Shown here piece after piece: positions 1 to 33,438 of a stretch of 46,648 nucleotides of DNA. The DNA comes from a virus. Numbering within the stretch: the stretch's first letter is position 1; the number at the start of each line of letters is the position of its first letter. The notes under the pieces are model-generated. The model was not told the DNA's origin. It saw only the letters and a list, made by a program, of their open reading frames with translations, and did no database searches. Both the position numbers and the translations under genes were made by a program. The stretch lies in the IMG/VR virus record IMGVR_UViG_3300035701_006853, positions 1-46,648 of that record. One strand, given 5' to 3'.

Positions 1-746
1 CTTACGTAAAATCTGTGAACACCTCGCGCCTGGACGTGGAAATTCGGACGTCCGCGATCGCGGCGGCTCTGGACCACATTGTCACTGCGGGCACTGCGGT
101 TACGATATATTTTAAGGCCGCTCTTTCACTGGACGACACCGCGGCCCTTTCTGCTCTTGTTGCAGCGCACGTCAACACTCCTCTGCCCTACGCGACGCCT
201 CCTTCCGACAATGAAGACGCGCCGATCGTTCGCCTTAAAGCAGCAGCTCCTGGTTGGTATTTTCAGATCCACTCGGTCGAGTTCACGACAGCTAAATATG
301 GCGGCTTCTACAGTAAGAAGGTCGATGCGGCTACTGGTGTGGAGACAGATACGGGTTTCTGCACTCATAAGATCTACGACGCGGCCGGCGCTGAAATAAC
401 CTCGGGAGCTGGCGAAGGCAACGCCGTCCATACTCGGATGGATTGGCAAGTCAGCCACGATATGGAGATCCGAGGCTCGATGTTCACCCAAGCAGTGAGG
501 CCTCTTGTGGATTGTCGTCTGTGGGCTTTTGCTGCGCCTGGTATCGTGAACATACCCTTCACCCAAGGCGGGCTCAATCTCAGATATTTGCCGAGTGAGG
601 AGGCATTCACAGCTGAGGGCGGAACGGCAAAATTTCTGAGTGCTACTGTCCCTATGCCAGGCATCAATAAGTTTCGGCTGCTTTTAAAACACCCTGTTGG
701 CCTTCAGCATACGGCGCAGGTTCACTTTATGTTGTACAAGGCATGA
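1..746 (+). CDS. Phage structural-type protein, 5' end outside the window
   Basis: The reading frame is open to the left edge of the window: codons from position 3 read Y-V-K-S before a GTG at 15. The gene therefore probably starts upstream and about 245 residues are visible. There are no membrane segments or catalytic motifs I recognise. The protein is rich in beta-type segments and small residues, and it ends in a hydrophobic strand pattern (VHFMLYKA). Its stop overlaps the start of the next gene as ATGA, so it belongs to the same transcript as the peptidase-like protein and the fibre. By position it is probably a tail or fibre-associated structural protein, but that is inference from context only. 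Confidence 0.7.
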   Translation, partial: YVKSVNTSRLDVEIRTSAIAAALDHIVTAGTAVTIYFKAALSLDDTAALSALVAAHVNTPLPYATPPSDNEDAPIVRLKAAAPGWYFQIHSVEFTTAKYGGFYSKKVDAATGVETDTGFCTHKIYDAAGAEITSGAGEGNAVHTRMDWQVSHDMEIRGSMFTQAVRPLVDCRLWAFAAPGIVNIPFTQGGLNLRYLPSEEAFTAEGGTAKFLSATVPMPGINKFRLLLKHPVGLQHTAQVHFMLYKA

Positions 747-1228
747 TAAAAATACTGTACTCCAGAAACCGACTGCCCTTCTCTCAGCTCATCTGCTGGG
801 CTACCAAAAAGCCTGTGAGCCATGTTGTTGTCGTATTTGACGATAGAATCGTCTACCACTCCAATCCTATGGGCGTGCATCTTAATAGCTACCCATGGTT
901 TTTAAAACACAACACAGTGGTTTATGAAAAGAGGATCGAGAGAAGTCTCGAGGAAGAGGAAGCGGCTTACCTCGCCATCACACTTATCGAAGGCAGCCTC
1001 TACGATTTTGGTAGCATTATCTATTACGGATGCCGCCTTATTCTGCTCGGCCTGTTTGGCAAGCCGCTACCAAAGAAGAATCTCTGGGCCTCAGGCAAAG
1101 CGTACAGCTGCGTCGAAGTCCTGGGCGAACTGCCTCCCTGGATCTGGCCGGATTCCAAGCCGCCGGGTAACCCGCTGGCCACCTACGAACCTTACGAACT
1201 CGCGAAATATATGGGGGCCACTGCATGA
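743..1228 (+). CDS. Permuted papain-fold (YiiX/NlpC-P60-like) hydrolase
   Basis: 161 aa. The order of motifs is His first, Cys later. SHVVVVFDDRIVYHS places His27 at the start of a beta strand with an acidic pair behind it, and AYSCVEVL places Cys123 at the N-terminus of a helix. That order is typical of circularly permuted papain-fold proteins (the YiiX/DUF830 branch of NlpC/P60), which cleave amide or ester bonds, often in peptidoglycan or lipids. A hydrophobic helix lies between the motifs (about residues 90-105). The gene overlaps both neighbours by ATGA, between a structural gene and the giant fibre gene, so a tail-borne enzyme acting on the cell envelope is plausible. Catalytic assignment rests on motif pattern only. 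Confidence 0.6.
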   Translation: MIKILYSRNRLPFSQLICWATKKPVSHVVVVFDDRIVYHSNPMGVHLNSYPWFLKHNTVVYEKRIERSLEEEEAAYLAITLIEGSLYDFGSIIYYGCRLILLGLFGKPLPKKNLWASGKAYSCVEVLGELPPWIWPDSKPPGNPLATYEPYELAKYMGATA

Positions 1229-8442: not shown

Positions 8443-9282
8443 TTGAACATTCTCAAGTTCGCACCGTTTCCCTCTTCGGATGTGGCCCATTACCGTATCT
8501 ATAGAAGCATCATTGGCTTCACCGCCACCAATGCGCTCCCCGCAACGGTCTCAGGTAAGACGCTCCAGCTAAAAATGAATGGCACCGCACTCCAAACGAT
8601 TACGTTTTCCGGCGTGGCTACCGTTCCCGACCAGATCAATCTTGTGCTCACGGGCGGACGGGCCTACCCAAACACAGCTGACCTGGGGGCTACTTTTCTG
8701 CTCCGAAGCGATATCAGGGAGGCGCCTGGATCCGTGGAGATCGTCGGCGGATCTGCTCTCGTCGACCTCGGAACGACCGCGCGTGTCATAACGGAAACCT
8801 CTGAAGACGTGCTTCTCGTCACCATCCCCGCGCTTTTAGACCCGGAACTGCTCGTTGAGTTTCAAGATGACGACGGTGCCCTGCAGGATTTCTATGCAGT
8901 CCAGACCATAGACAGTTTTGGGAACCTTAGCTTCAAAACGGGCTACAGGAAAGCCGTCCAATACACCGGAGACATCTGCGTCGTCGAAGGGATTGTTACA
9001 GACCTTCAGGGTGTGCGGTACGTCGATGCGGAAGTGAAGGTGCGTCTGATTAAGTTCCCGCACTCCCCGGAAAAGGCTTCCCAAGTCACTCTTGGCGAGA
9101 TAACGACTCTCACAGGCCCGGACGGGCGTTTTTCACTGCCCCTTTTGCAGGGCGCGCTGGTACAGTTCGAAATACGAGTTGTTGGCTTTAACCGCAACAT
9201 AACTGTGCCGCTCAAAGCGTACGAGTTCATAACGGACATCCTTGTTGACCTCGACTATCGCTACCCTCTGGAGTTTGTCTGA
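8443..9282 (+). CDS. Structural protein with C-terminal carboxypeptidase-regulatory-like beta domain
   Basis: 279 aa. I chose the TTG start because a strong GGAGGAACC lies 6-12 bases upstream and the TTG follows the previous stop directly. The sequence is almost wholly beta-type. Residues about 180-265 (VEGIVTDLQGVRYVDAEV, then GPDGRFSLPLLQG) match the G-x-V-x-D-x-x-G-x-x-V / D-x-x-G-x-F pattern of carboxypeptidase-regulatory or Ig-like domains found in phage decoration and baseplate proteins. The stop overlaps the portal start (TGATG). It is likely a tail or fibre-connected structural component; the exact place in the virion is unknown. Confidence 0.6.
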   Translation: MNILKFAPFPSSDVAHYRIYRSIIGFTATNALPATVSGKTLQLKMNGTALQTITFSGVATVPDQINLVLTGGRAYPNTADLGATFLLRSDIREAPGSVEIVGGSALVDLGTTARVITETSEDVLLVTIPALLDPELLVEFQDDDGALQDFYAVQTIDSFGNLSFKTGYRKAVQYTGDICVVEGIVTDLQGVRYVDAEVKVRLIKFPHSPEKASQVTLGEITTLTGPDGRFSLPLLQGALVQFEIRVVGFNRNITVPLKAYEFITDILVDLDYRYPLEFV

Positions 9283-11231
9283 TGACCGCAAATTTAGAGC
9301 CCAGTCTGTCCTTGAGTGACTCCCGGAGCCAAAGGTACCCGAATCAGTTCTTTGACCTTGCGCAGCAGTACATGCCGCCTACGATCAAAGAGCTTTTCAG
9401 GTGGTGCACATTTTATTTTTATAACTCCCCCCTAATCGGCTCGGCGATGAAAAAGGTCAGCCGCTATCCGATTACGGACCTTATCTTCGAAGACGGGCTC
9501 GAGGCTAATCGCAGCGTGTGGAATACCATCTTGCTGACAGACCTCAAGATGAAAGACAGGATGATGGAGGTGAACCTGGACTACCATGTCTACGGCAACG
9601 CCTTTGTCTCACTGCATTTTCCTTTCATCCGGTTTCTCATTTGCCAGTCTTGCAAATTCCGCGCGCCTATCAAAAATTGGGATTGGCAGTTTCGGGGCAG
9701 CGACTATAACTTCGCTGGAACCTGCAGCCAGTGCGGTAGCAACGGCGCGGTTGAGGTCAAGGATGTGCCCTATAAGAACAGGAAAGAGCTGCGGATAATT
9801 CGCTGGAATCCTGAGAACATCCACATAAAATTCAACGAGTACACCGGCCGCTACATCTACATGTACTCGGTCCCTGGCAAGCTCCGAAATATGATCCAGC
9901 GCGGTGACAAAGACATCCTTGAGGATCTGCCGATCATTGTCCTTGAGGCCCTCAAAAAACGCCGGATGATTCGCTTCAGCTCTGACAGCCTCAAGCATCT
10001 GAAGCAGCCGACCCTCGCAGAGCAGGATCAAGGCTGGGGCAAGCCTGCGATCCTCCACGTTCTCAAAGACATGTTCTACCTCTACACCCTTCGTCGGGCG
10101 CAGGAGGCTATTGCGCTCGAGCACATTGTCCCCTTCGATCTGATCTACCCGCTGCCCAATGCGCAGCAGGATCCTTACATCCATACTGACCTGTCGAGTT
10201 GGCGAATTCAGATCGAAACGGTAATCAATAAGCACCGACGCGATCCGAACTTCAAGGCTGTAATACCTATCCCCATTGGGTTTGGTAGGCTTGGTGGTGA
10301 TGGCAAGGCTCTGCTGCTCGCGCCTGAGATTAACTACCTCACGCAGACCATAGTAGGCGGACTTGGCTTACCTCAAGAGTTCCTTTTTGGCGGGCTTAAT
10401 TGGACGGGGTCTAGCGTCTCTCTGCGAACTCTCGAGAACGACTTTATCCAAAACCGCAGTCAGATGCTGGATTTGACGATTTGGATCAAAGACAAGATCC
10501 GCATTTGGCTCACGCTCCCCGACATCAAAACCATCCGCATGTCTGATTTTAGGATGGCGGACGACATTCAGAAAAACCAACAGCTCATTGGGCTTAATGC
10601 GCAGCGCAAGGTTTCCGATCAAACCCTTCTTACAGAGCTTGGCTATGACTACGACCAGGAAGTCAAGAAGATGATCGAAGAGCAGCACGTTCAAAACTAC
10701 CTGACCGACCTGCAGACCAAAAGCAGCGCGCGGAGTCAGGGCGAGGCTATGCTTATCCAGTCCAACTACCAGCGGACTCTGCAGGAAAACGTGGAGAAGG
10801 CTCAACTGGCTACGCAGGAGCGGGCTTCGCGGTTGGGCATCACGATGCCAGGGCAGCCGGGGATGGACCCTAATGCGGCGGCAGCCCAAGGCGATCCCGG
10901 CATGGATCCTTCGGGCGGCGGGCAGCAGCCGGAGAAGCCTATGGACGAGCTGGTTATGGCGAAAGTCGATAGCTGGGCAAGTCAGTTGGCAAAGATGGAT
11001 CCAGGGCAAGCGGCTATGACCCTCTCCGAGATAAAAACTAAGATGCCGGAGATCGGCATTCAGATTGAGCAGCGGATGAGCGAGATGCAAGCCGGATCCA
11101 CAGGCGGGCAGGCACCGGCAGCTCAGGTTCCTCAGACCCAGGTTGCAGCGCCTTCCGGAGAGCCGCCAGCTGGCATTAATATGAATCCTTTGCCTGAGCG
11201 GTCGGCCCCAAGAAGGCAGGGAGCTGTTTAA
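9282..11231 (+). CDS. Portal protein with an inserted four-cysteine zinc ribbon
   Basis: 649 aa. The overall pattern is that of phage portal proteins, the dodecameric ring through which DNA enters and leaves the head. There is an N-terminal clip/wing region, a long central part containing GGLGLPQEFLFGGLNW and the helical run up to ENDFIQNRSQMLD (the family's stem and crown region), and a C-terminal Gln/Ala/Pro-rich low-complexity tail (about 550-649). Cys121-x2-Cys124 and Cys148-x2-Cys151 form a probable zinc ribbon inserted near residue 120, which is unusual for portals. The start overlaps the previous stop (TGATG) and the stop overlaps the next start (TAATG). The call rests on overall resemblance and position; I could not run a profile search. 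Confidence 0.75.
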   Translation: MTANLEPSLSLSDSRSQRYPNQFFDLAQQYMPPTIKELFRWCTFYFYNSPLIGSAMKKVSRYPITDLIFEDGLEANRSVWNTILLTDLKMKDRMMEVNLDYHVYGNAFVSLHFPFIRFLICQSCKFRAPIKNWDWQFRGSDYNFAGTCSQCGSNGAVEVKDVPYKNRKELRIIRWNPENIHIKFNEYTGRYIYMYSVPGKLRNMIQRGDKDILEDLPIIVLEALKKRRMIRFSSDSLKHLKQPTLAEQDQGWGKPAILHVLKDMFYLYTLRRAQEAIALEHIVPFDLIYPLPNAQQDPYIHTDLSSWRIQIETVINKHRRDPNFKAVIPIPIGFGRLGGDGKALLLAPEINYLTQTIVGGLGLPQEFLFGGLNWTGSSVSLRTLENDFIQNRSQMLDLTIWIKDKIRIWLTLPDIKTIRMSDFRMADDIQKNQQLIGLNAQRKVSDQTLLTELGYDYDQEVKKMIEEQHVQNYLTDLQTKSSARSQGEAMLIQSNYQRTLQENVEKAQLATQERASRLGITMPGQPGMDPNAAAAQGDPGMDPSGGGQQPEKPMDELVMAKVDSWASQLAKMDPGQAAMTLSEIKTKMPEIGIQIEQRMSEMQAGSTGGQAPAAQVPQTQVAAPSGEPPAGINMNPLPERSAPRRQGAV

Positions 11232-13171: not shown

Positions 13172-16100
13172 ATGAGAAATTTTGACGCCACCCAGCAATC
13201 GCAATCAGTGAAAACATCGGCAGTGGACGCCGTGAAAAGCATCTTTCCCGTGGTCGGCAAGATCCGAACGATGCAGCTCGATAATGTGTGGGTAGAGGAA
13301 AAGGCTGATCTGAATGACTACGCCGCCCAGGCAAAGACCAAAACGCAGGAAGGCACTTGGGGCGTCCCTGTGTATGCAAGCCTCTCGCTTATTGAAAACC
13401 AGAGCGGAAAGGTGGTCGACAAAGCCCCGAAAATCAGGCTGTTCCTTTTGCCTATGGTCACGGATCGCTCCAGCTACATCGTGGCTGGCAACGAATACCA
13501 AGTTAATAACCAACTGAGACTGAAGACCGGGGTTTACACGGTCAGGAAGCAAAACGGTGAGCTCAAAACTCAGGTTAACCTCGCGAGAGGGAAAAACTTT
13601 GACCTCGGTTTTAATGAGGCAAGTGGTATCTTCACCCTACAAAAGGTCGGCGGCGGCCAAACGAACATTCCTCTTTATCCTATTCTTACTCATCTCGGCA
13701 TATCTCCTTCTCTCATTGCACAAACCTGGGGGTCTAAACTGGAGGCCGTGAACCAGCGGGGCGATCCTAAGTCGGTAGCGCGCGCGGAGACGGCTTTTGG
13801 GGCGCAGAAGGCTGGGCTCTCTGAGTACTTCAAGAAGACCGAGATCTCCAGTGCGACAACCAAAATGGTGCTGGGAACGGGATACGATAAAGTGGACGGA
13901 CCTATGCTCCTGGCCTGCTCGAAAAACCTCCTGGAGGTGCAGCTCGGAAAGAAGGAGGCCGTCGACCGCGACTCCCTTGCTTTCAAGGAGCTGCACAGCA
14001 TTGAAGACTTTATCAAAGAGCGGCTTGAGAAGAATAAGAAGGACCTGGCCTATAAGATTCAGCGGCAGATTGATTCCTTGCGCCGAACCAAGGTGACCCA
14101 AATCGTCAACCCTGGCCTCTTCAGCGGAGTCGTGCAGAGTTTCTTTACGCAGGATGATAAATCGTCCACCCCCGAGCAGACCAATCCCTTGGAAATGCTC
14201 TCCGGTGCATACAGGGCTAGCTTCATGGGTTCAGGCGGGATCACCTCGCAACACGGAATCAAAGACGAGACGCGGCAGATCCATCCTTCGCACTACGGGT
14301 TCATTGACCCAGTGCATACGCCAGAAAGTCAAAAAATCGGCGTAAACCTGCATTTACCAATGGGTGTGGTGAAAGACGGCAAGGACCTAAGAGTCCAATT
14401 GGATAACGCCAAGTCTGGTAAAAGAGAGCTTTTAACCCCTGTCGAAAGCTGGGAGAAGTACGTGGCCTTTCCTGGGCAGACAGGCGATTCGCTAAAGGTT
14501 ATGCACCAAGGCGCAATCCAAACTGTGCCCCGCTCAAAGGTGGACTTTTACACGCCGAGCGCCACCATGCTGTTCTCACCGTCGACCAACCTTGTCCCGT
14601 TTCTGCCGGCGAATCAAGGCAATCGGGCTATGATGGCTTCCAAAATGCTCGAGCAAGCGATCGGTCTCAAGCATCGTGAGGCCCCGCTTGTTCAGGTGGG
14701 CGTCGCCCCCGATGTTTCCATGGAGCAGCTGGTAGGGCATAATATTGCGGCACATGCGCCGGATGCGGGGACCGTTAAAAAAGTGACTGCAGACGGTATC
14801 CTGCTTGCGACAGCCAAGGGCGACGTCAAGGTCAACCTCTACAACAACTTCACGCTGAACAGGAAGTCGTTTCTTAACCATACCGCACTCGTCAAAGAGG
14901 GCGACACGGTAGCCAAAGACCAGCTTCTAGCTGAGAGCAACTTCACCAAAGACGGCACTCTTGCGTTGGGCATAAACCTCCGCACAGCCTACATCCCTTA
15001 TAAGGGCTACAACTTTGAGGACGGTATCGTCATCTCACAGTCCGCCTCTGAAAAGCTGACAAGCGAGCACATCTATAAGAAAACCTACGAGATTTCCAAG
15101 AACTCCATAATGAAGCTGCCTTCGTTCCGCGCGTTCTACCCCAACGCAATCACTGCCGCAAATGCGGCCAAGCTCGATTCGGATGGGGTTATAAAGAAGG
15201 GTCAGCGTGTTAAAACAGGTGAGGTGATCATCGCCGCTCTGCAAAAGAGAAACCCAGACGCACGCATCGCGGTCATCAGCAAGACACTTGCAGAAAGGCC
15301 AAAAGATGCCAGTATCTACTGGACTGCTGAGGACGAAGGGACTGTCACAGAAGTCCAAAGAGGGACTGGCTCGGTCTCCGTTTTCATAAAAACTGAAGAA
15401 GCTGCGAGAATTGGCGATAAGCTCTCTGGCCGGATGGGCAACAAGGGGATCATTACTAAGATCCTTCCGGATGCCCAGACGCCCCGCGATGGAAGCGGAA
15501 AGCCGGTCGATATCCTACTCAACCCTCATGGTGTTATCGGCCGGATCAATATCGGGCAAATCTATGAGTCAGCCGCCGGAAAAGCCGCACTTAAAAACGG
15601 TGCCCCCTACAAAGTCGAGAACTTCACAGGGCAAAATTACCTTGGGACAACTCGAAAGTTTCTCAAGCAGTCAGGCATTAAGGATAAAGAAGAACTCTTC
15701 GACCCTGAAACAGGTAAGAGTCTCGGCGATGTCCACGTTGGAAACCCATATATACTTAAGCTCTTTAAACAATCCGCAGGTAACTTTTCAGCTCGGCAAG
15801 GGGGACCTGGAGCTACTTACGACGCAAATATGCAGCCCGTTAAAGCTGGAGGAGAAGAAGGCTCAAAAAGCCTAGATCTTCTGACGATGTACTCCATGCT
15901 CTCGCACGGGGCAAGGGCTAACCTGCAAGAGATGTCGACGCTTAAAAGTAATAAGAACGATGAGTATTGGACGGCTCTACGTGGGGGCCAGCAGCTGCCG
16001 CCGCCTAAAGCGCCCTTCATCTACGATAAGTTTATCGCCTACTTAAAAGGCGCTGGTATAGACGTTACCAAAGACGGCACCAAGTCCACACTTGGGCCGC

Positions 16101-19100
16101 TTACCGACAGTCACGCACTTGAGATGTCTTCGGGTGCGGTCATGAAGCCTCACTTTTATCATGCAAAAGATTTTCAGCCGGTTAAGGGCGGGTTCTTTGA
16201 TACCCGGACTTTTGGTGGTATCGCCGGTAAGAAGTGGGGGCATCTGGACCTGAAGGAGCCCGTAGTCAATCCAGTCTTTGAGGACGCTGCCCGAAACCTT
16301 CTTGGCCTTGCTGGTAAGTTTGACGAAGTCGTCGGCGGGAAGCTCTTTGTGCAAAAAGATGGCTCCCTTAGCAAAGGCAGTGCTGGCGGCCTGACTGCCG
16401 GTGCCGGCATTGAGCGCCTATTAAAGAACGTGGATGTCGATACGCAGCTGGAGAGCCTGACGAAAAAAGCCGCGGGCTTCACTGGCACAAAGCTGAATGA
16501 TGCCAACAAAAAACTTCGCTACCTTACTGCGCTCAAGACGCTGAACATGAAACCCCACGAAGCGTATATCCGCCGCAATGTGGCTGTGCTGCCGCCGATT
16601 TATCGGCCCATCTACCCGCTTCCAGATGGGAGCATGGCCAGCTCGGATGTGAACACCCTCTATCAAAAGCTGGGCGTCGTCAATTCGATGATGCAGCTGC
16701 CCGTCATGTCTCTTCTCCCGGAAGAGGAAAAGGCCAATATCCGGCAGGATCTCTACAACCATGTGAAAGGTGTAGCGGGCCTGATGGACGTGACCACAAA
16801 AGGCAAAGTTAAGGACGGCCTCATCGCGCAGATTAAGGGCGGCACGGGCGGTCAGCCCAAAGAGGGCCTTTTCATTAGTAAGCTCCTAAGCAAGCAGCAG
16901 GATTTTGTGGGGCGCGGCACTATTATTCCCGAGCCCTCCCTTGGCATCGACGAGATGGCGATGCCTGAGGAGATGGCCTGGAAACTCTTTGAGCCATTTG
17001 TCGTCCGTGAGCTTAAAAGCATGGGAAAAAATCCGCTGCAGGCAAAAGAGGAGATCAAAAAGAAATCAGCGCTTGCCAAGCGAGCTCTGCAAATAGTCAT
17101 GAGCACGCGGCACGTTCTTCTGAACAGGGCGCCGTCACTTCATAAGTTTTCGATCATGGCGTTTAAGCCGAAGATCACCGATGGCAAGGCGCTGAAGATC
17201 CCGCCACTGATAGTGAAGGGATTTAATGCAGATTTCAATGGGGATTCCATTGATATTACTACCATTATTAACGTCAGGTATAATAAAAATGAGTTGACTC
17301 AAGAGCCCCTTTGGGTTTATTACTCTCTCGTTGCCGGCAATCTTTTTGAAATGGTCACGGGTAAAACTATCGACGAGATGGTGGCTGAGGCCCGTGGTTT
17401 TACAGCGATCTACGAGATTGCTGGGGGGAGGTTGCAGACAATGTCAATGATAGATGGAAGCCCAGAATGGACCGATGTTCAGCGCCTTACTGTCCACACG
17501 TCTCACGGGCCTTGCTATGAGGTACTGACTCATACAGGAACCCGCGTGATCACGACCGAGCACCACAACTTCAGCTATATCAATGAGGCGTTCGATCTGT
17601 GCTGCGTAAAAACCGAGGTGATGCGGCCTGGGGTGCTGCTGCCGAAAGCATTGCCCAACATAGGCTCTAGCAACATCCAAACTCTAAAGATCTCGAACGT
17701 CACGCATCGACTTGACGAGGAGATGGCGTGGGTTCTTGGCTTTTACGCAGGAGACGGGTCCGCGTCGGACGCGACGGTTTCTTTCTGCGACACGGACCCA
17801 GTCGTCATGGAGCATATCTGCGGCATTCTGCGTCGCCGCTTTAATTTCGGAACAAAGCTCCAAGGTACAAAGCTCCATAAGGATTGCATTGCGAGGCTCT
17901 ATAGCAAAGAGCTTTGCAACTGGTTTACGGAAAACTGCGGTGCTGGGTTTGCCGGCGTAAAAATTCCGACGGAAATCTTCAACAGCCCACACGCAGTCAG
18001 GCTCGCCTACGTACGCGGAGTATTTCAGGCGGAAGGCAGCGTTGGCCCAGACGCGTACGGTAACTACCAAGCTCGGCTTGAGATGTGTAACTTCCCATAT
18101 GTCGAGTCCCTTCGCTACCTCATGTCTTCTGTTGGCCTTGACGCGTACCTCGCTGAATGCCTCCACGAAGGCCGGCAGACCGGCCACCTTCTGAGGCTGC
18201 GAAAGTCCTGTATGGCTACACTCCAGCCGGTCCTAAGCAAAAAACAGGAAAAGTTGGCTGAGGCGGTGCGGGTGAAAGATAGCCGCCGGCACCGGGACGA
18301 TTACGATATTGTGCCGTTCTCAAAAGCACTGCTCGACGAAGTCGTCGCCATAGGCCATAGGCACAAAAGCCTTTCAAAAACTGATAAAGCAGCAGTCGCC
18401 GAATGGAGGGCGAAAAACCCTGGCAGGAAAATCTCCGCCATGGATCATTTTAAAGGTAACCAAGAGTTTGTCTCGCGCCATATAGCTTTTGATGTCATCC
18501 ATACTTACGGAGCTCTGGCCTCACCCTACTTTTTGAAGTGGGCGGGTCTTGTCAAGGACGAGCGTCTTCGCTGGGAACAGGTGCTGAGCATCACGGAGGT
18601 TCCGAGGAAAGAGGTTATGTTTGACTTTACGGTCCCGCGTGGCGAGATGTTTCTCGTGCAGAATGGGCTTTTCACCCACAATACCATGACTGTGCACGTT
18701 CCTGTCAGCGAGGACGCAAACAAGGAGGCCGCTCGGCTTTTGCCTTCTAGAAACCTGTTTCAACCCGGCACAGGCTCGCTCATGATCCAACCTTCTCAGG
18801 AAGCGCAGATCGGGCTTTTCTACCTCTCGCAGACCCCAGCGGGCAGGCAGAGAATAAATGTTCTTCTGCCCGATAAGTATAAGATTTCGGCCATGCTGGA
18901 CAAGAAAGCTACGGGCACGCTGACGATGGCGCTTGCGAAAGAATTGCCCGCAAATCAATACGGCACTATCGTTGCGGCGCTTAAGGCTGAGGGTGAGAAG
19001 CACGCTTTTGAGCGGGGCTTTACTCTCGGCATGGATGATATCGCCCAATTTGGTGCGACACGGGACCGGATTGTGGATGCTGCGGATAAGGCTGCGAAGA

Positions 19101-20638
19101 AGGCCAAGACCCCAGAAGAGCTGATGTCGATCAACAAGCGCGCGTCCTCCCTCATTGATAAGATGATTGACCATAAGCTGGTAGGAAAGGACAACCCTCT
19201 CTACGACATGGTTCAGTCTGGTGCGCGCGGCAACAGCAGTCAGCTCAGGCAGATCATTGCCTCTCCGCTATTTATGTCTGATGAGAAGGGCCGGATTGTC
19301 CCAACAGCGATCAAGAAGTCTTACGCCGAAGGGCTGGATATCGGGGACTATTGGATCTCCATGTACGGGGCTCGTCGCGGAATGATGGATCGCGCAATCC
19401 AGACTTCGCTGCCGGGGGCATTCTCCAAAGACATAATGGCGACCACGATCAACAACGTGGTTTCCATGGAAGACTGCGGAACCCATGAGGGGGTTACCCA
19501 TAAACTGGACGACAAAGATGTGTTCGATCGGTACATGGCCGGCGACCAGGGCGGCTACTCGCACAATACGCTAGTGGACGCGCGTGTCCTCTCGGATCTA
19601 AAAAAACACGGGCTCTTGCAAGTGAAGGTGCGAAGTCCGCTGCGTTGCCGGGCACCAAAGGGCACTTGCGCCAAATGCTACGGCATAGACGAGCATGGTG
19701 GGGCGCCGTCGGTTGGCGACAATATCGGCTCGAAGGCAGGGCAGACGATGTCCGAGCCATTAATACAGATGGTGATGCGAACGTTCCATACTGGCGGGGC
19801 TGCGGGCACAGGCGCTGATGCTCAAGGCTATGCGCGAGTCAATCAGCTCCTGCAGATGCCGAAGATTGTGGTGGGCGCTGCACCTCTTGCGGCCAAGGAC
19901 GGCAAGGTCTCGAAGATTACCAAGGGCCTCGGCGGCGGATTTGATGTGACGCTTGAAGGTTCTGTCTACCATGTGCCTGCAGGCAAGCCGCTCAAAGTTT
20001 CTGTGGGCAGCAGGGTAGCTATCGGCGATCCGCTCTCAGAGGGCGTGGTGAAGCCACAGGACCTCGTGAAGCTCAAGGGGATGGACGCGGCGCAAGACTA
20101 CATCGCTAGCGAGCTGCAGAAGTCCTACGCTGGACAGGGCATTCATTTGCACAGAAAGATCTTTGAGACGGTCGTGCGCTCCTTGGGCAATACGACTCAG
20201 GTTCAGAACAACCCCAAAGACACGGGCTATCTGCCGGGGGATATTATCCCTTACACCGTAGCTCAGGACTACAACCGCAATCTTGAGGTCACTAAAACCC
20301 CAGAGGACGCGGTCGGCTATAAGCTCAGCAAGGCAACGGAGGGCATGCGTGAAGGCCATACCGTAACGCAGGCCGATGCTGATGTTATGAGAGCTCGTGG
20401 CATTAAAGAGCTCACGATTAAAAAAGACCCATTGATCCATGCGCCTTTGCTAAAATCCCTCAAAACGCTGCCGCTCCTCAGTAAGGATTGGATGGGCTCG
20501 CTTGGCTACCAGCAGCTTCAGAAGGCGCTGACTCTCGGCGCTGGCCAAGGCTGGTCTACGGATACTTCTGGATATCACCCTATCCCGGCATTTGCGCAGG
20601 GCGTGGCGTTCGGCAAAGGAAAGGACGGTAAGTATTGA
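13172..20638 (+). CDS. Single-chain RNA polymerase: beta fused to beta', interrupted by an intein
   Basis: 2488 aa as translated, 2009 after intein removal. Beta motifs come first: HYGFIDPVHTPES (374-386), GYNFEDGIVIS (from 612), GDKLSGRMGNKG (from 748) and the beta C-terminal-type segment near MYSMLSHGARANLQEM. Beta' motifs follow: GGFFDTRTFGG (about 1005-1015), the switch/rudder region VLPPIYRPIYPL, VGRGTIIPEP, LLNRAPSLHKF (from 1316), the Mg-binding loop NADFNGD (1352-1358), MVHVP-type sequence after the intein, four zinc cysteines (2102, 2159, 2166, 2169), and trigger-loop MRTFHTGG (from 2202). The order and completeness are those of cellular rpoB-rpoC joined in one chain. The middle catalytic Asp is Asn1356. 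It lies between phage structural genes and heads a plus-strand module with a helicase. It probably transcribes phage genes; whether it is packaged in the virion is inference. Confidence 0.95.
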   Translation: MRNFDATQQSQSVKTSAVDAVKSIFPVVGKIRTMQLDNVWVEEKADLNDYAAQAKTKTQEGTWGVPVYASLSLIENQSGKVVDKAPKIRLFLLPMVTDRSSYIVAGNEYQVNNQLRLKTGVYTVRKQNGELKTQVNLARGKNFDLGFNEASGIFTLQKVGGGQTNIPLYPILTHLGISPSLIAQTWGSKLEAVNQRGDPKSVARAETAFGAQKAGLSEYFKKTEISSATTKMVLGTGYDKVDGPMLLACSKNLLEVQLGKKEAVDRDSLAFKELHSIEDFIKERLEKNKKDLAYKIQRQIDSLRRTKVTQIVNPGLFSGVVQSFFTQDDKSSTPEQTNPLEMLSGAYRASFMGSGGITSQHGIKDETRQIHPSHYGFIDPVHTPESQKIGVNLHLPMGVVKDGKDLRVQLDNAKSGKRELLTPVESWEKYVAFPGQTGDSLKVMHQGAIQTVPRSKVDFYTPSATMLFSPSTNLVPFLPANQGNRAMMASKMLEQAIGLKHREAPLVQVGVAPDVSMEQLVGHNIAAHAPDAGTVKKVTADGILLATAKGDVKVNLYNNFTLNRKSFLNHTALVKEGDTVAKDQLLAESNFTKDGTLALGINLRTAYIPYKGYNFEDGIVISQSASEKLTSEHIYKKTYEISKNSIMKLPSFRAFYPNAITAANAAKLDSDGVIKKGQRVKTGEVIIAALQKRNPDARIAVISKTLAERPKDASIYWTAEDEGTVTEVQRGTGSVSVFIKTEEAARIGDKLSGRMGNKGIITKILPDAQTPRDGSGKPVDILLNPHGVIGRINIGQIYESAAGKAALKNGAPYKVENFTGQNYLGTTRKFLKQSGIKDKEELFDPETGKSLGDVHVGNPYILKLFKQSAGNFSARQGGPGATYDANMQPVKAGGEEGSKSLDLLTMYSMLSHGARANLQEMSTLKSNKNDEYWTALRGGQQLPPPKAPFIYDKFIAYLKGAGIDVTKDGTKSTLGPLTDSHALEMSSGAVMKPHFYHAKDFQPVKGGFFDTRTFGGIAGKKWGHLDLKEPVVNPVFEDAARNLLGLAGKFDEVVGGKLFVQKDGSLSKGSAGGLTAGAGIERLLKNVDVDTQLESLTKKAAGFTGTKLNDANKKLRYLTALKTLNMKPHEAYIRRNVAVLPPIYRPIYPLPDGSMASSDVNTLYQKLGVVNSMMQLPVMSLLPEEEKANIRQDLYNHVKGVAGLMDVTTKGKVKDGLIAQIKGGTGGQPKEGLFISKLLSKQQDFVGRGTIIPEPSLGIDEMAMPEEMAWKLFEPFVVRELKSMGKNPLQAKEEIKKKSALAKRALQIVMSTRHVLLNRAPSLHKFSIMAFKPKITDGKALKIPPLIVKGFNADFNGDSIDITTIINVRYNKNELTQEPLWVYYSLVAGNLFEMVTGKTIDEMVAEARGFTAIYEIAGGRLQTMSMIDGSPEWTDVQRLTVHTSHGPCYEVLTHTGTRVITTEHHNFSYINEAFDLCCVKTEVMRPGVLLPKALPNIGSSNIQTLKISNVTHRLDEEMAWVLGFYAGDGSASDATVSFCDTDPVVMEHICGILRRRFNFGTKLQGTKLHKDCIARLYSKELCNWFTENCGAGFAGVKIPTEIFNSPHAVRLAYVRGVFQAEGSVGPDAYGNYQARLEMCNFPYVESLRYLMSSVGLDAYLAECLHEGRQTGHLLRLRKSCMATLQPVLSKKQEKLAEAVRVKDSRRHRDDYDIVPFSKALLDEVVAIGHRHKSLSKTDKAAVAEWRAKNPGRKISAMDHFKGNQEFVSRHIAFDVIHTYGALASPYFLKWAGLVKDERLRWEQVLSITEVPRKEVMFDFTVPRGEMFLVQNGLFTHNTMTVHVPVSEDANKEAARLLPSRNLFQPGTGSLMIQPSQEAQIGLFYLSQTPAGRQRINVLLPDKYKISAMLDKKATGTLTMALAKELPANQYGTIVAALKAEGEKHAFERGFTLGMDDIAQFGATRDRIVDAADKAAKKAKTPEELMSINKRASSLIDKMIDHKLVGKDNPLYDMVQSGARGNSSQLRQIIASPLFMSDEKGRIVPTAIKKSYAEGLDIGDYWISMYGARRGMMDRAIQTSLPGAFSKDIMATTINNVVSMEDCGTHEGVTHKLDDKDVFDRYMAGDQGGYSHNTLVDARVLSDLKKHGLLQVKVRSPLRCRAPKGTCAKCYGIDEHGGAPSVGDNIGSKAGQTMSEPLIQMVMRTFHTGGAAGTGADAQGYARVNQLLQMPKIVVGAAPLAAKDGKVSKITKGLGGGFDVTLEGSVYHVPAGKPLKVSVGSRVAIGDPLSEGVVKPQDLVKLKGMDAAQDYIASELQKSYAGQGIHLHRKIFETVVRSLGNTTQVQNNPKDTGYLPGDIIPYTVAQDYNRNLEVTKTPEDAVGYKLSKATEGMREGHTVTQADADVMRARGIKELTIKKDPLIHAPLLKSLKTLPLLSKDWMGSLGYQQLQKALTLGAGQGWSTDTSGYHPIPAFAQGVAFGKGKDGKY
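17246..18682 (+). mobile_element. LAGLIDADG intein inside the polymerase catalytic loop
   Basis: 479 codons, residues 1359-1837. It starts at Ser1359 directly after NADFNGD and ends at His-Asn (FTHN), with Thr1838 as the first C-extein residue. Removing it rejoins NADFNGD to TMTVHVPVSEDA, the normal continuation of this beta' motif. Splicing blocks are visible: a block-B-like TGTRVITTEHHNF (about 1453-1465), and block F/G EVMFDFTVP, then VQNGLFTHN. The endonuclease part has two LAGLIDADG-type helices, LGFYAGDGS (1522-1530) and VRGVFQAEGS (1614-1623), each with its acidic catalytic residue. Block A (SIDITTIINV) is divergent. Both splicing and homing functions therefore look intact. The product must splice for the polymerase to work. 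Confidence 0.92.
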
Positions 20639-21135
20639 TGGATTATGTAATTTTTTACCACGGCACCTGGTCTGAAGCCTCGCGCAGCGTGAAGCAGAAG
20701 CTGGACAGGCACAAGGGTGCCGATAGCGTTGAAGTCCGGGAAGTCGATGTAGATAAGGCCACAACGCCTCCGACTTATGATGGTCAGCTTATCCGCTCTC
20801 TTCCCTTTTTGGTGCGCTATGAGAACGGTCGTCCTGTCGATCACCTAGTGGGTGACGTTCCTGAGGATGCGGTGCGCCGCTTTATTGCCAGGACTCGGAC
20901 GAAGACGGCCTTCTGGGACGGGTTCGAGAAGGCCGCAAGAAAGCTGACAAGCAAGGCGCGTAATGCCTTGACCGATGACAGTTTCGTCTTCCCTGGCGAA
21001 CGACGCTACCCCATCCACGATATCAATCATGCGCGAAATGCGCTGGCCCGAGTAGCTCAGAATGGGAGCCCCTCTGAGCAATCCGCTGTGCGGTCTGCTG
21101 TGCATCAGAAATATCCCGAGCTGAAAGAGGATTGA
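20638..21135 (+). CDS. Redox-dead thioredoxin-like protein with FWDGF motif and C-terminal phage domain
   Basis: 165 aa; the ATG overlaps the polymerase stop (TGATG). Residues 1-85 have a thioredoxin-like pattern: strand VIFYHGTW, then a cis-proline strand SLPFLVRYENGR with Pro56. The expected W-C-x-x-C is W11-S-E-A-S, both cysteines being serine, so disulfide chemistry is excluded. Residues 89-100 carry KTAFWDGFEKAA, the motif shared with neighbouring genes. Residues about 110-165 (FVFPGERRYPIHD, then HARNALARVAQNG) match a small domain I remember from many phage structural proteins (DUF6582-like). Three modules in one small protein suggest an adaptor. The following gene starts 1 base after its stop. 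Confidence 0.75.
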   Translation: MDYVIFYHGTWSEASRSVKQKLDRHKGADSVEVREVDVDKATTPPTYDGQLIRSLPFLVRYENGRPVDHLVGDVPEDAVRRFIARTRTKTAFWDGFEKAARKLTSKARNALTDDSFVFPGERRYPIHDINHARNALARVAQNGSPSEQSAVRSAVHQKYPELKED

Positions 21136-21136
21136 A

Positions 21137-22567
21137 ATGAACGCATTTTGGCGAGGCTTTCTGAAGCAGGCAAAGCTCCGTGAATCCACGAAACTAGAGC
21201 CGCACCAGCTCAGAGTTCAAGAGCGCCTCAAGAAAAAACCGGGGCTGCTCCTCTACCACGGCCTCGGCAGCGGCAAGAGCCTATCAGGAATTGCGGCTTC
21301 GCAAGGCGAAAAAACCGACGTCGTAGTGCCTGCCAGCCTTCGCGGAAATTTCCAGAAGGAGGTGCAAAAGCACACGACCGGCTACAAGCCCAATATCATG
21401 AGCTACGATAAGGCGGTAAAGACTCCTGCAACGGGCGATACCTTGATCGTGGACGAAGCGCATATGCTCGGCACGCCTGGCTCGATGAGAAGTCAGGAAC
21501 TGCTCAGAAAAGCCCCTGAGTACAAAAAGAGGATTCTGCTGACAGGTACCCCAATCCGAAACCACCCATACGAAATCGCCCCGCTGCTCAGAATGGTGCG
21601 CGGCGACGATGCGGTGCCGACCGACCCAAAGGCGTTCAACGAGCAATACATCTCCGAGCAGAAAGTGAGTCCCGGAATCTTGGCCAGGATCTTTCACGGC
21701 GCCAAGAACGGGGTGGAGTACAAGATCAAAAACCCGGACAAGTTCTCCTCACTCGTCCAGGGTTACGTCGACTACCACGCGCCGGCCAAAGAGAATTTCC
21801 CGGCCGTCACCCACGAAAGCATCGACGTCCCCATGAGCAGTGAGCAAATGAAGTACTATGACTTTGTCATGAAAAAGGCAGGGCCTGCGCTCAAATACAA
21901 GATTCAGCGCGGCCTCCCCCCATCGAAAGCCGAGGCTACCCAATTGAACGCGTTCCTATCCGGAGCGAGGCAGGTAGCCAATAGCACCAAGTCCTTTGGC
22001 GGGACGGAGACCTCTCCTAAGATCCAGAGGGCGGTGACGGCTCTTCAAGATTTGAACGCTAAAGACAAGAACTTCAGGGGGCTTGTCTATTCAAACTACC
22101 TTGACGCAGGTGTCCGCGATTACGCCGACCAACTCAAGTCGTCTGGGATTCCCCATGCGATCTTTGACGGGAGCCTCTCCGATTCCAAGCGAAAAGCCAT
22201 GATTCACGACTATAACACTGGCAAAGTGAAAGTCTTGCTCATCTCCGGCGCAGGGTCCCAGGGCCTGGATCTGAAAGGGACTAAACTCATCCAACTGCTA
22301 GAGCCGCACTGGAACAATGCCAGACTCGAGCAGGCCGAGGGTCGGGGAATTCGCTACAAAAGCCACGACCACCTTCCAGAGGCCGAGCGGCACGTGCTGG
22401 TGCAAAGATTCCAGTCGACCATACCCAAGTCATTTACCCAAAAGATTCTGGGTCAAGAGGCCAATATGGGGGTCGACCAATATCTCAGCATGCTCTCCGG
22501 CAAGAAGGATGCGCTGAACGCGCAGTTTCTGGATATTCTAAAACAGCAGGGCAGCAAGCCTGTATAG
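21137..22567 (+). CDS. SF2 helicase/ATPase, Snf2- or viral D6/D11-like
   Basis: 476 aa. Helicase motifs in order: Q-motif-like HQLRVQ (23-28), Walker A GLGSGKS (42-48), DEAH box VDEAHM (105-110), motif III LTGTP (135-139), motif IV GLVYSN (315-320), motif V GAGSQGLDL (371-379), and motif VI QAEGRGIR (399-406) with its arginine finger. A complete ATP-dependent translocase is therefore expected, acting on duplex DNA or on nucleic acid-protein complexes. The first residues, MNAFWRGFLKQAK, are the FWxGFxKxA motif at the very N-terminus. It follows the polymerase and thioredoxin-like genes with almost no spacing, so it may assist transcription, as Snf2-family and poxviral D6/D11 ATPases do. Confidence 0.88.
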   Translation: MNAFWRGFLKQAKLRESTKLEPHQLRVQERLKKKPGLLLYHGLGSGKSLSGIAASQGEKTDVVVPASLRGNFQKEVQKHTTGYKPNIMSYDKAVKTPATGDTLIVDEAHMLGTPGSMRSQELLRKAPEYKKRILLTGTPIRNHPYEIAPLLRMVRGDDAVPTDPKAFNEQYISEQKVSPGILARIFHGAKNGVEYKIKNPDKFSSLVQGYVDYHAPAKENFPAVTHESIDVPMSSEQMKYYDFVMKKAGPALKYKIQRGLPPSKAEATQLNAFLSGARQVANSTKSFGGTETSPKIQRAVTALQDLNAKDKNFRGLVYSNYLDAGVRDYADQLKSSGIPHAIFDGSLSDSKRKAMIHDYNTGKVKVLLISGAGSQGLDLKGTKLIQLLEPHWNNARLEQAEGRGIRYKSHDHLPEAERHVLVQRFQSTIPKSFTQKILGQEANMGVDQYLSMLSGKKDALNAQFLDILKQQGSKPV

Positions 22568-27979: not shown

Positions 27980-29968
27980 ATGGTAATGCCTGCAAACCTG
28001 TTCATAGATGCGCCAGACGTCCAGGATGTTTCCCTCTCTCAGCTGTCCAACGAAATGGAGGTCTGGCCCGAGGAAATCATCCAAAAATTCAAGGAGCGGA
28101 TCCCCGAGTCGACCGACCTGAATATTATGGTCAAATTTATGAAGAAGGACGAAGAGAACGGGACGGCGACCGGCTCTATCATCGTCAACGGCGCAGACCG
28201 TGCCGCAATCATTCCGCTTATAATCAAAGACTTCATGCTGTTCCCACTCGACGTGATGATTGCAAAGGGCAGGCTCTTGCCACTGACACCTACCTTCTTT
28301 GCTGCGGTCTTCCAAAAGGGCGAGCTCTTTCAAGCAATCGAAGAGTACCCCACCTACGGCGGCCTTGGTCGTTTCGAGGACGCCAACCTTTGGAACGCGA
28401 CCTATCCGCCATCACTCGGCCGTTACGCCTACGCAAGCGCCAACTACCCGATCCTCGATTCCATAGCCGACACTATCAAGAACGCTTCCGAGCTTAAGAC
28501 CTGGCTTGTGGCTAACCCCACCCACTATGTCGCCTTCCGCAAGCACGGGCACGTCGATCTTCTGCAGAAGCTCGCCAACCTGCAAGCTGTGAACATGAGC
28601 GAATACGCCCAGGGTAAGGAGAGCCTGATCCCGAGAAACATCGCAGTTCTGCGAAGGGAGGGTCCTGACAAGTACACGATCCTCCGCAACTCGGATACGG
28701 TTTTCAGTCCTGCCATTACCCCCGACGTCAGCTACCACGACTGCATGAGCTTTGTCTCCAAGATCACAGGGGATGTAGGCTGCAGCGCTATGAACGAGGT
28801 CGACCGCAATGGCGAGAAATTGCTTATGCTGCCCGCGCCAAAGGACAACGTGGTTCTTGCGCGAACGGACTCTGAGATTGCAGAAAGCGCCGACTCCTTC
28901 GACAGCTATGCGGTCATGTCGAACACCGGCGTGACCGTTCTAGGGCAAGTGATTCCCAAGGTTATCGACTTTGATCAGAAGGCGGTGAACCTGAAGATAT
29001 TTCTCGGCAAGACCATGCAGACCATGCAGCCGGAAATCTGGGGCATTCGCTTGAAAAATGGGCCGGTCAAGATTCAGGGGTCAATGCCTGCGATTGGCCA
29101 GACGGGGACGTTTGTCTACCAACCCGAGGAAAGTCACGCACTCTGCACAATCCCGGTGACTGTGGTCATGGTCTCCTCACACGGACCTTGCGCGCTTACG
29201 CTGAAGGTCACAGACCTTATGGGGCGGCCTTTGCGGCTCCGTCTTTCTCATGAGATGGATGTGCACCGTATCGCGCTGCTGAACGGCGAATATATTCTGC
29301 CAGGCGGAATGAAATGGGTGCCCATGAGCGGCTTTTCTCCTGTCAGTTCTTCTGCAGAGTCCTATGCCGTGAAAATAGCCGGGGCCAAGATTACCGATCG
29401 TCCCGTGAGTCTTTTATCCACAGGTTTTGGTCAATTCTCGATGAAGGGTGTGGACAAGTATGCGTCCGCGTTGGGCTGGGACCGCACAAATCTGCACAGC
29501 TACCAAGCAAAGTTTCTTCTCGCCTCTCTCGGATGCGGTGAGAAGCAGATCGCGGGCGCGATCAAGCACGCCCAGGTGCAAGGCAAGGCCGAGCTGCACA
29601 ATTTGAATTTCCCGCCCCTCATGGCCGAAAAGCACGCAGAGAAAGTGCCCACCGCCGAGAAACTCGTGAAACTGGCGAAGCTCCTGCGGCGCAACCTCTT
29701 CAAGGAAGCCAGCTACATTGATAATGCGCAGACAGTGGACGCCCTGCTCGCTTTGAACTTTGTAAATCCTGACAACATTGCTAAGTTCATAGGAAAGATC
29801 CCGCAACTGAAGTCCGCTATCTCTACGCTCGCCAGCTGTATTCTTGCGAGCCGTGTAGGGATGAAAGAGATTCCTGAAGAGGCGGCCTCGACTGCGATGC
29901 ATCGCTTGATCGAAGTTGTCGAAGGTCTTGAGAAACTGCGTGCTGCCAAAGAGATTGCTCCGAGCTGA
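27980..29968 (+). CDS. Large unidentified virion-type protein
   Basis: 662 aa; the ATG is preceded by GGAG at suitable spacing. The N-terminal 150 residues are mixed alpha/beta (VWPEEIIQKFKERIPESTDL, then AIIPLIIKDFMLFPLDVMI). The centre (200-470) is beta-rich with repeated DFDQKAVNLKIFLGK- and SFDSYAVMSNTGV-like strands. The C-terminal 150 residues are helical (AEKLVKLAKLLRRNLFKEA, then LIEVVEGLEKLRAAKEI). There are no nucleotide-binding or protease motifs. It lies between spike genes and the terminase and is followed after 12 bases by a motif-bearing thioredoxin-like gene. A structural or internal virion protein is the most likely role, by context. Confidence 0.55.
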   Translation: MVMPANLFIDAPDVQDVSLSQLSNEMEVWPEEIIQKFKERIPESTDLNIMVKFMKKDEENGTATGSIIVNGADRAAIIPLIIKDFMLFPLDVMIAKGRLLPLTPTFFAAVFQKGELFQAIEEYPTYGGLGRFEDANLWNATYPPSLGRYAYASANYPILDSIADTIKNASELKTWLVANPTHYVAFRKHGHVDLLQKLANLQAVNMSEYAQGKESLIPRNIAVLRREGPDKYTILRNSDTVFSPAITPDVSYHDCMSFVSKITGDVGCSAMNEVDRNGEKLLMLPAPKDNVVLARTDSEIAESADSFDSYAVMSNTGVTVLGQVIPKVIDFDQKAVNLKIFLGKTMQTMQPEIWGIRLKNGPVKIQGSMPAIGQTGTFVYQPEESHALCTIPVTVVMVSSHGPCALTLKVTDLMGRPLRLRLSHEMDVHRIALLNGEYILPGGMKWVPMSGFSPVSSSAESYAVKIAGAKITDRPVSLLSTGFGQFSMKGVDKYASALGWDRTNLHSYQAKFLLASLGCGEKQIAGAIKHAQVQGKAELHNLNFPPLMAEKHAEKVPTAEKLVKLAKLLRRNLFKEASYIDNAQTVDALLALNFVNPDNIAKFIGKIPQLKSAISTLASCILASRVGMKEIPEEAASTAMHRLIEVVEGLEKLRAAKEIAPS

Positions 29969-31635: not shown

Positions 31636-33438
31636 GTGAAAACCGAGATTTCAAACTGTAACACTGAGGGCGAAGATGAGGACGAAGAGACGGCCTACCA
31701 CGACAGTCCGGCGCTACCGGACGAGAAATCAGTCGCATGCGTCACAAGGGCAGTCAATAAGAACGGAACTCTGCGGGAAATCTTCAAGGCCAAAAAGTCG
31801 GACTTCGTCAGAAACCTTATTTTCTTGGATGGGGCCAAATTCGATTTCACTGGAAGAGGCTATCTAAGGCCACTCTACGACTCGAACCATAAGCGAGTCC
31901 TTCTTAAGACCGCGAGACAGGTAGAAAAAACGACGTACCTCGCTAACAACCTGACGATCACCTCTGTCGTCACCCCGTACAACAAGAGCCTCTACGTCTC
32001 CCCGTCCCACACACAGACGAGACAGTTCAGCAACGAGAAACTCAGACCATCCATAGAGCGCAGCCCCTACATCAAAAAATACTTCCAGGACAGCTCCGTC
32101 TCCACCCAGGTCTTCGAGAAGGGTTTCACCAACGGCAGCTACATCTTCCTTCGGTCAGCATTCAGGTCTGCGGATAGAACTCGCGGGATTTCAGCCCGGG
32201 TGTTGGCTTTGGACGAGATTCAGGATTTCCTGACTACAGAGATCCCCGTTATCATGGAATGTACCTCCCATTTTCCGGATGCCAGTAACCTTATGGCGGG
32301 GACCCCCAAGTCCCACGACAACCCGATCGAGCTCTACTGGAACTCGACAACCCAGAACGAGTGGATGGTGCCTTGCCAGAGCTGCGGAAAGTGGAATTTC
32401 CTGGACGAGACCAATGTCGCCCCTACGGAGCTCTACACCTCCTACAAGCTGCCACCAGGGCCCGTGTGCAAACGCTGCGCGAAGCCCATACACCCGCCGC
32501 TAGGGCAGTGGGTCTCCTTTCAGAAGGGTCAAGCCATTCAGGGATACCGCATCCCCCAGCTCATGGTGCCTTGGATTACGGGCATCGACGCCCAATGGCA
32601 GAAGCTGCTCTGGAAGCGGGACAACTACCCCTTTGGCCAGTTCAACAACGAGGTCCTGGGCCTGTCCTTTGACAGCGCGAGTAAGCCAATAACGCGTGAT
32701 GAGCTGATGGAGGTCTGCGGCGACTACGGACTTTGGGACCTGAGGACCCAGGCCGGAACCGAGCAGGCCATCCACGAGGCCGGAAGATATGCTCTGACGG
32801 GCGGGGTGGATTGGGGCGAGGGAAATGACGGCGCCGAGAAAAGTCCCTCTGGGAAGGTCAGGAACGCGTCCTACACGGTACATACAATTGGCGGGTATGT
32901 GAATCAGAAGAAGTGGAAGGTCCTCTACATCCGCAAATACGAGGGGCGCGATATTGACCCAGACTTCGTCGTGCGGGACATTGCCCGGGTCACAAACCTC
33001 TTAGGCGTCAAGGTGACAGGCGTAGACTGGGGCCATGGCTGGGGCGTGAACAACGTGCTCGTCCGCATGCTCGGCGTCAGCCGGGTCGCCCAGTTTCAGT
33101 ATTTGCCAAAACTCAAGCAACGGCTTAAGTGGGATCCGCTCGGGCAGCGGTTCCATCTGCAGAGAAACTTCATGCTCTCCGAGCTCTTCTTTGACATCAA
33201 GCACGGACTGGTGGAATTCCCGAGATGGAAAGACTTCGAGTACTTCGCCAGGGACATTCTCGGCATCTACACCGAATACATCGAGTATCGGCGCGAGGTG
33301 AAGTACGACCACCGCCCGTCGGACCCGGACGATTTCTTTCATTCTTTGCATTATGCAAAGCTGATGTCCGATATCTATGCCGGTAAAAGCCGTCGGTATA
33401 CGATTGATGCGGTTGACGTCGGAGGCGGATACTCCTAG
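31636..33438 (+). CDS. terL: Terminase large subunit
   Basis: 600 aa. The GTG start is supported by AGGAG seven bases upstream. The ATPase half has a Walker A-like TARQVEKTT (92-100, with Glu97 where Gly is usual) and Walker B RVLALDE (188-194). A four-cysteine zinc ribbon follows: Cys247/Cys250 and Cys278/Cys281. The nuclease half (RNase H fold) shows GGVDWGEG (Asp392), TGVDWGHG (Asp464) and SDPDDFFHSLHYA (Asp565/566), the usual three acidic clusters. The N-terminal 30 residues are acidic. It cuts concatemeric DNA and pumps it into the prohead through the portal. The combination with a zinc ribbon recalls GpA-type terminases. It ends convergent with a minus gene, both stops lying in one CTAG. 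Confidence 0.93.
   Translation: MKTEISNCNTEGEDEDEETAYHDSPALPDEKSVACVTRAVNKNGTLREIFKAKKSDFVRNLIFLDGAKFDFTGRGYLRPLYDSNHKRVLLKTARQVEKTTYLANNLTITSVVTPYNKSLYVSPSHTQTRQFSNEKLRPSIERSPYIKKYFQDSSVSTQVFEKGFTNGSYIFLRSAFRSADRTRGISARVLALDEIQDFLTTEIPVIMECTSHFPDASNLMAGTPKSHDNPIELYWNSTTQNEWMVPCQSCGKWNFLDETNVAPTELYTSYKLPPGPVCKRCAKPIHPPLGQWVSFQKGQAIQGYRIPQLMVPWITGIDAQWQKLLWKRDNYPFGQFNNEVLGLSFDSASKPITRDELMEVCGDYGLWDLRTQAGTEQAIHEAGRYALTGGVDWGEGNDGAEKSPSGKVRNASYTVHTIGGYVNQKKWKVLYIRKYEGRDIDPDFVVRDIARVTNLLGVKVTGVDWGHGWGVNNVLVRMLGVSRVAQFQYLPKLKQRLKWDPLGQRFHLQRNFMLSELFFDIKHGLVEFPRWKDFEYFARDILGIYTEYIEYRREVKYDHRPSDPDDFFHSLHYAKLMSDIYAGKSRRYTIDAVDVGGGYS

What the first reader, a model, noticed from the sequence alone, without database searches (positions are those of the whole stretch)
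13172..20638. Complete beta-beta' RNA polymerase fused in one chain inside a phage structural region
All main motifs of cellular RpoB then RpoC appear in order in one ORF, including the four zinc cysteines and the trigger loop, with 2009 residues after intein removal, against about 2750 for E. coli beta plus beta'. Known phage multisubunit-type polymerases are mostly split (phiKZ type) or strongly reduced (YonO, crAss-like). A near-canonical fused form between portal and baseplate genes looks unusual. Its place among structural genes suggests, by inference, that it may travel in the virion.
Basis: partly seen in the sequence, partly recalled or inferred. Interest (0 to 1): 0.9.

Follow-up and report, generated by a model that had tools for sequence, protein, structure and literature searches.

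The report
Single-chain phage RNA polymerase with intein
This virus fragment encodes a cell-type RNA polymerase with its two big subunits joined in one protein, a member of a widespread phage family whose cultured relative carries the enzyme inside the virus particle; unusually, this copy has a self-splicing insert in the active site and an asparagine in place of one of the three catalytic aspartates.

Summary
The ORF is real: 2488 aa, of which 2009 remain after removal of a 479-aa intein, with beta then beta' motifs in order. It is not a host gene or a misassembly. At least 65 phage loci encode the same one-chain enzyme, and 46 more a derived form with beta' cut in two; where neighbours are visible they share one portal-RNAP-structural-terminase block. 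A tree separates them from bacterial RNAPs (support 100). Each of 28 long relatives has exactly one such RNAP and no alpha subunit; 24 of 28 have a sigma-like protein related to Arash gp10. In cultured Salmonella phage Arash the homologous polymerase, this sigma and the neighbouring SNF2 helicase are prominent virion proteins (published proteome). This Asn occurs in three diverged lineages, always with one intein family, and in none of about 70 relatives without it. The gene is under strong purifying selection, so the enzyme seems functional. How is open: Asn may be tolerated, or Asn-Gly may deamidate to Asp.

The parts
13172..20638 (+). single-chain beta-beta' RNA polymerase gene, 2488 aa precursor, 2009 aa after splicing
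   Evidence: 65 one-chain relatives
13172..16066 (+). beta-like half (about residues 1-965)
   Evidence: family profile vs E. coli RpoB E 7e-137; AlphaFold model of residues 1-1199, pLDDT 85, matches bacterial beta chains E 1e-71
16067..17245 (+). N-terminal part of beta' (about residues 966-1358): clamp and active-site barrel, no zinc ribbon
17225..17245 (+). catalytic metal-A motif, here NADFNGD instead of NADFDGD
   Evidence: codons
17237..17239 (+). codon AAT for Asn in place of the middle catalytic Asp (E. coli beta' D462)
   Evidence: same in L005, L008, L006, L174
17246..18682 (+). 479-aa intein (Ser1 ... His-Asn | Thr+1) with LAGLIDADG homing endonuclease
   Evidence: Pfam Intein_splicing 1.5e-10, LAGLIDADG_3 4.6e-6; absent from L012/L007; alignment
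18683..20635 (+). C-terminal part of beta' (residues 1838-2488)
   Evidence: AlphaFold pLDDT 81, PDB match bacterial beta' E 7e-38
19340..19447 (+). bridge helix region
   Evidence: alignment
19475..19678 (+). stretch holding the four Zn2-site cysteines (E. coli beta' C814, C888, C895, C898 equivalents)
19739..19816 (+). trigger loop with conserved M-R..H (E. coli M932, R933, H936)
9282..11231 (+). portal protein
   Evidence: 29-31% identity to Arash gp204 and D69 counterpart; upstream of RNAP in 63 of 63 loci where found
21137..22567 (+). SNF2-family helicase/ATPase, orthologue of Arash virion protein gp217
   Evidence: 38.6% identity, E 4e-101; SNF2 and Helicase_C domains
27980..29968 (+). 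conserved protein of the same block (homologues in Arash and D69)
   Evidence: downstream of RNAP in 65 of 65 loci where placed
31636..33438 (+). terminase large subunit, gpA type

Best explanation
The gene encodes a one-chain DNA-dependent RNA polymerase of an old phage lineage (very probably mReC). Shown: sequence, domain order, gene order, intein. Inferred: the precursor splices itself; the 2009-aa product folds into both jaws of the enzyme without alpha, the fusion doing the assembly work that alpha does in bacteria; a phage sigma-like protein (present in 24 of 28 relatives, not on this fragment) gives promoter choice; the enzyme is made with structural proteins, packaged with the sigma and the SNF2 ATPase, and enters the cell with the DNA to start early transcription. 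It is the only RNAP of this type found in its long relatives.
For: Pfam and E. coli alignment; predicted folds match bacterial beta and beta'; 65 one-chain and 46 split loci; portal upstream on the same strand in 63/63 and terminase downstream in 46/46 loci where found; one RNAP and no alpha above cut-off in 28/28 long records; gp10-like sigma in 24/28 including L012, the closest relative with a long contig; Arash virion proteome: gp206 128 unique peptides, gp216 40, sigma gp10 24, helicase gp217 38, against 2 for primase and 2 for DNA ligase (PMC10585845); exteins window vs L005 dN 0.007, dS 0.219.
Against: No virion data for any one-chain member: Arash belongs to the split-beta' branch and its RNAP is only about 34% identical. 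The Arash list also holds enzymes that look like carry-over, as its authors say. No sigma gene lies on this 46.6-kb fragment. The Asn at a metal-A position would by precedent harm catalysis: a metal-A Asp-to-Asn allele disrupts plant Pol V (PMC2605557).
Confidence: 0.7

Rival explanations
1. The enzyme is a one-chain RNAP but not a virion RNAP: it is expressed with the late block and transcribes late genes; presence in Arash particles is carry-over.
For: Late-type genomic position also fits a late polymerase; the Arash authors name carry-over as an option and some replication enzymes appear in the list.
Against: Unique-peptide counts of gp206, gp216, gp10 and gp217 are an order of magnitude above those of most replication enzymes; only one RNAP per genome, in the portal-terminase block.
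Confidence: 0.2
2. The window's polymerase is catalytically dead or very weak because the middle metal-A aspartate is Asn; the gene is kept for another role.
For: Motif NADFNGD in window, L005, L008, L006 and L174; metal-A aspartates are described as invariant and one Asp-to-Asn allele disrupts Pol V function (PMC2605557).
Against: All other catalytic residues checked are kept; strong purifying selection; Asn found only together with one intein family, which is not how random decay would look.
Confidence: 0.12
3. A recent bacterial rpoBC gene or a host-phage chimera of assembly.
For: High similarity to bacterial RNAP motifs.
Against: Phages and bacteria separate with support 100 and a branch of 0.81; same gene order in dozens of contigs; near-identical contigs from two other metagenomes (L005, L008).
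Confidence: 0.01

Closest known systems
mReC RNAPs (multi-subunit RNAP-encoding Caudovirales; Weinheimer and Aylward 2020, PMC7481178)
   Same: cell-like, alignable beta and beta' in phage contigs with portal, terminase and tail genes; a branch apart from bacteria
   Different: the paper's main text speaks of beta and beta' subunits and uses 'fused' only for crAssphage; this copy would fail its NADxDGD filter. Its supplements could not be read here.
Salmonella phage Arash gp206/gp216 and Vibrio phages D69/D148/D181
   Same: beta fused to the N-terminal part of beta', same portal-RNAP-structural order, about 32-34% identity
   Different: there beta' is cut after the catalytic barrel into a second gene; no intein there; Asp at the catalytic site (AADYDGD)
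phiKZ/AR9-type virion and non-virion RNAPs
   Same: phage-encoded beta/beta' homologues; one set travels in the virion
   Different: split into four or five polypeptides and two sets per genome (PMC7598289, PMC13282480); here one chain and one set
Cobetia phage Carin-5 and Yersinia phage YerA41 RNAPs
   Same: phage beta and beta' homologues, about 26-29% identity
   Different: separate genes in a replication block; only weak tree support (67) that they lie outside the family
crAss-like RNAP and YonO
   Same: one-chain phage enzymes with two-barrel RNAP motifs (literature)
   Different: so diverged that beta/beta' profiles do not find them (PMC7481178); the present protein matches Pfam beta/beta' families far above cut-off

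Membership tests
two-barrel (multi-subunit type) DNA-dependent RNAP | beta and beta' core domains in order | tested here: met
two-barrel (multi-subunit type) DNA-dependent RNAP | three metal-A aspartates (NADFDGD) | tested here: not met
   NADFNGD in window, L005, L008, L006, L174; all other relatives read keep DxDGD
two-barrel (multi-subunit type) DNA-dependent RNAP | RNA synthesis activity | not testable with these tools
   needs purified protein
mReC RNAP lineage | bacterial-type beta and beta' on a tailed-phage contig | tested here: met
   Pfam/phmmer hits, portal and terminase; the COG profiles of the paper were not at hand
mReC RNAP lineage | branch apart from cellular RNAP | tested here: met
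   bacteria vs phages support 100; archaea were not included
mReC RNAP lineage | groups with the published mReC sequences | tested here: inconclusive
   contigs of metagenomes 3300017989 and 3300000786 were not among the loci found
mReC RNAP lineage | motif NADxDGD used as filter | tested here: not met
   relatives such as L012 meet it
phiKZ-type RNAP | split subunits and two RNAP sets per genome | tested here: not met
   one chain; one set in 28/28 long relatives
virion RNAP | protein present in the mature particle | tested here: inconclusive
   by homology only: Arash gp206/gp216
class 1 LAGLIDADG intein | Ser/Cys1, TxxH block, terminal His-Asn, nucleophilic +1, LAGLIDADG domain | tested here: met
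   intein-free alleles L007/L012
crAss-like / YonO RNAP | strongly diverged, not found by beta/beta' profiles | tested here: not met
   no direct comparison with crAss or YonO sequences was made

The most novel reading that the evidence does not exclude
The Asn at the catalytic position is functionally tied to the intein: the spliced enzyme is made with an inert NADF-N-GD site and becomes active only when the Asn-Gly step deamidates to Asp, giving a polymerase that matures with time, for example inside the virion.
Probability: 0.1. Interest if true: 0.9.

Novelty: new variant of a known kind. Interest (0 to 1): 0.6.

Why it matters
It shows that a near-cellular RNAP is encoded as one chain, with no alpha gene, in a large and little-studied phage lineage, and that splitting of beta' came later within it. 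That gives natural compact RNAPs with phage sigma factors for structural work and for asking how old phage RNAPs are. The Asn at a metal-A site, kept in three lineages with one intein family, is an exception to a motif described as invariant in cellular RNAPs and gives a direct test of whether all three aspartates are needed, or can be made after translation.

Tried and rejected
Host gene or chimera: rejected by tree, synteny and sister contigs. Split intein as the cause of the two-gene form in Arash/D69: rejected on reading the ends: gp206 continues past the catalytic motif with ordinary beta' sequence and gp216 starts without intein blocks; the break lies about 50 residues downstream. Linking to the published mReC contigs by metagenome number failed. 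An archaeal outgroup was not obtainable, so the depth of the phage branch rests on the paper. A scan of bacterial genomes found one phage-type relative, in a deltaproteobacterial MAG contig (L130); no host can be named for the window. A paper on E. coli metal-A mutants (NAR 2005) is not held.

Full report
Observation. The window (a virus record of 46,648 bases) has one ORF at 13172-20638 of 2488 aa. Pfam places beta domains, then beta' domains, with an intein splicing domain and a LAGLIDADG domain between Rpb1_2 and Rpb1_4. The intein spans residues 1359-1837, right behind the catalytic motif, starts with Ser, ends with His-Asn and is followed by Thr. Intein-less relatives L007 and L012, 73% identical, read NADFDGD-TMTVHVP straight through. 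Spliced length is 2009 aa.

Completeness. In a MAFFT alignment with 14 relatives and E. coli RpoB+RpoC, the catalytic lysines of beta, the beta' R425, N458, D460, D464, R731, the trigger-loop M-R..H and the four Zn2 cysteines are kept. The N-terminal zinc ribbon is missing in all members shown, as are the large inserts of the E. coli enzyme. Position D462 is Asn. AlphaFold models of residues 1-1199 (pLDDT 85) and 1838-2488 (pLDDT 81) match bacterial beta (E 1e-71) and beta' (E 7e-38) chains in the PDB.

Relatives. IMG/VR gave 78 loci with the window protein and 44 with a split relative, with some overlap. Where both ends are seen, 65 loci have one chain and 46 have beta' cut about 50 residues after the catalytic motif. 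The split members form one branch inside the family (support 86), so the cut looks derived from the fused form, subject to modest backbone support. Cultured relatives are Salmonella phage Arash and Vibrio phages D69, D148 and D181. A tree of 913 columns separates all bacteria from all phages (support 100, branch 0.81); the family is monophyletic against Carin-5/YerA41 with only 67.

Neighbourhood. Homologues of the window's portal lie upstream on the same strand in 63 of 63 loci where found, those of 27980-29968 downstream in 65 of 65, terminase downstream in 46 of 46. The helicase at 21137-22567 is a SNF2-type ATPase and orthologue of Arash gp217. Of 28 long records, each has one beta core, none has alpha above cut-off, and 24 have a homologue of the Arash sigma-like gp10, including L012. 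gp10 carries sigma-70 region 3 (E 9e-9). It is not on the window.

Virion. In the published Arash proteome (PMC10585845) gp206 has the most spectra of all (3516; 128 unique peptides), gp216 1210 (40), gp10 467 (24), gp217 1148 (38). Divided by length, gp206, gp216 and gp10 give about 2.3, 2.0 and 2.0 spectra per residue, which would fit equal copies (my arithmetic; spectral counts are rough). Replication enzymes in the same list, such as primase and DNA ligase, have two unique peptides. This supports, by homology, a packaged RNAP-sigma-ATPase set. It is not shown for one-chain members.

Inteins and the catalytic Asn. L005 and L008, 98-99% identical to the window, carry a second intein in beta (HTPE|SQKIG) that the window lacks; other members have inteins at this site, at the catalytic site and at three further sites. 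At the catalytic site several strongly diverged inteins occur. The window's is shared with L006 (54% identical) and L174 (50%). These, with L005/L008, are the only ones read with NADFNGD; L012 (no intein) and L009 (another insert) lie among them in the tree and keep Asp. L006 and L174 inteins are 71% alike while their exteins are 59% alike, which suggests transfer of the intein; the Asn, a few bases upstream of the joint, could have moved with it by co-conversion. That would explain the link but not how the enzyme works. dN/dS of the exteins between window and L005 is 0.034, so the protein is under selection. Metal-A aspartates are described as invariant, and a metal-A Asp-to-Asn allele disrupts plant Pol V (PMC2605557). 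Three readings remain: Asn is tolerated here; Asn-Gly, a sequence prone to deamidation (own knowledge), becomes Asp; or activity is lost. I cannot decide between them.

Known or new. A phage lineage with deep-branching beta/beta' (mReC) was published in 2020 from IMG/VR and other metagenomes. The present family meets its description, but I could not match its named contigs. Its main text does not say the subunits are fused; its supplements were not readable here. I therefore call this a new variant of a known kind: one-chain, without an alpha gene, probably virion-borne, with an intein and an Asn in the active site. Natural beta-beta' fusions in Helicobacter and Wolbachia (own knowledge) show that fusion itself is compatible with activity.

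Noticed in passing
L005, L008 (beta, ...HTPE|SQKIG...): Near-identical alleles of the window gene carry an extra 352-aa intein in the beta fork/Rif region that the window lacks: presence/absence of a mobile intein at 98-99% identity.
   Followed up: partly
L060, L043, L050/L082, L080, L009 at the NADFDGD site: Other, strongly diverged inserts sit at the same catalytic site; some start with Gln or end with Asp, unusual for inteins.
   Followed up: partly
L130 (JAKPDW010000082.1): A one-chain phage-type RNAP on a contig binned in a deltaproteobacterial MAG; possible phage or prophage of that host.
   Followed up: partly
window 37137-37913: 258-aa protein with a HicA-toxin-like N-terminal 50 residues (Pfam E 2e-4, below cut-off).
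   Followed up: no
window 743-1228: 161-aa protein similar to phrog_1128 (enoyl-CoA hydratase-like, E 8e-9).
   Followed up: no
window 1225-8022: 2265-aa protein with fibritin/neck-whisker-like stretches, probably a tail fibre.
   Followed up: no
window 20635-21135: 166-aa ORF overlapping the RNAP stop by 4 bases, kept in L005/L008; matches phrog_16160 of unknown function.
   Followed up: no
L002 8492-9529 (Arash gp196): Arash has a second, separate sigma factor that is not listed in its virion proteome.
   Followed up: no
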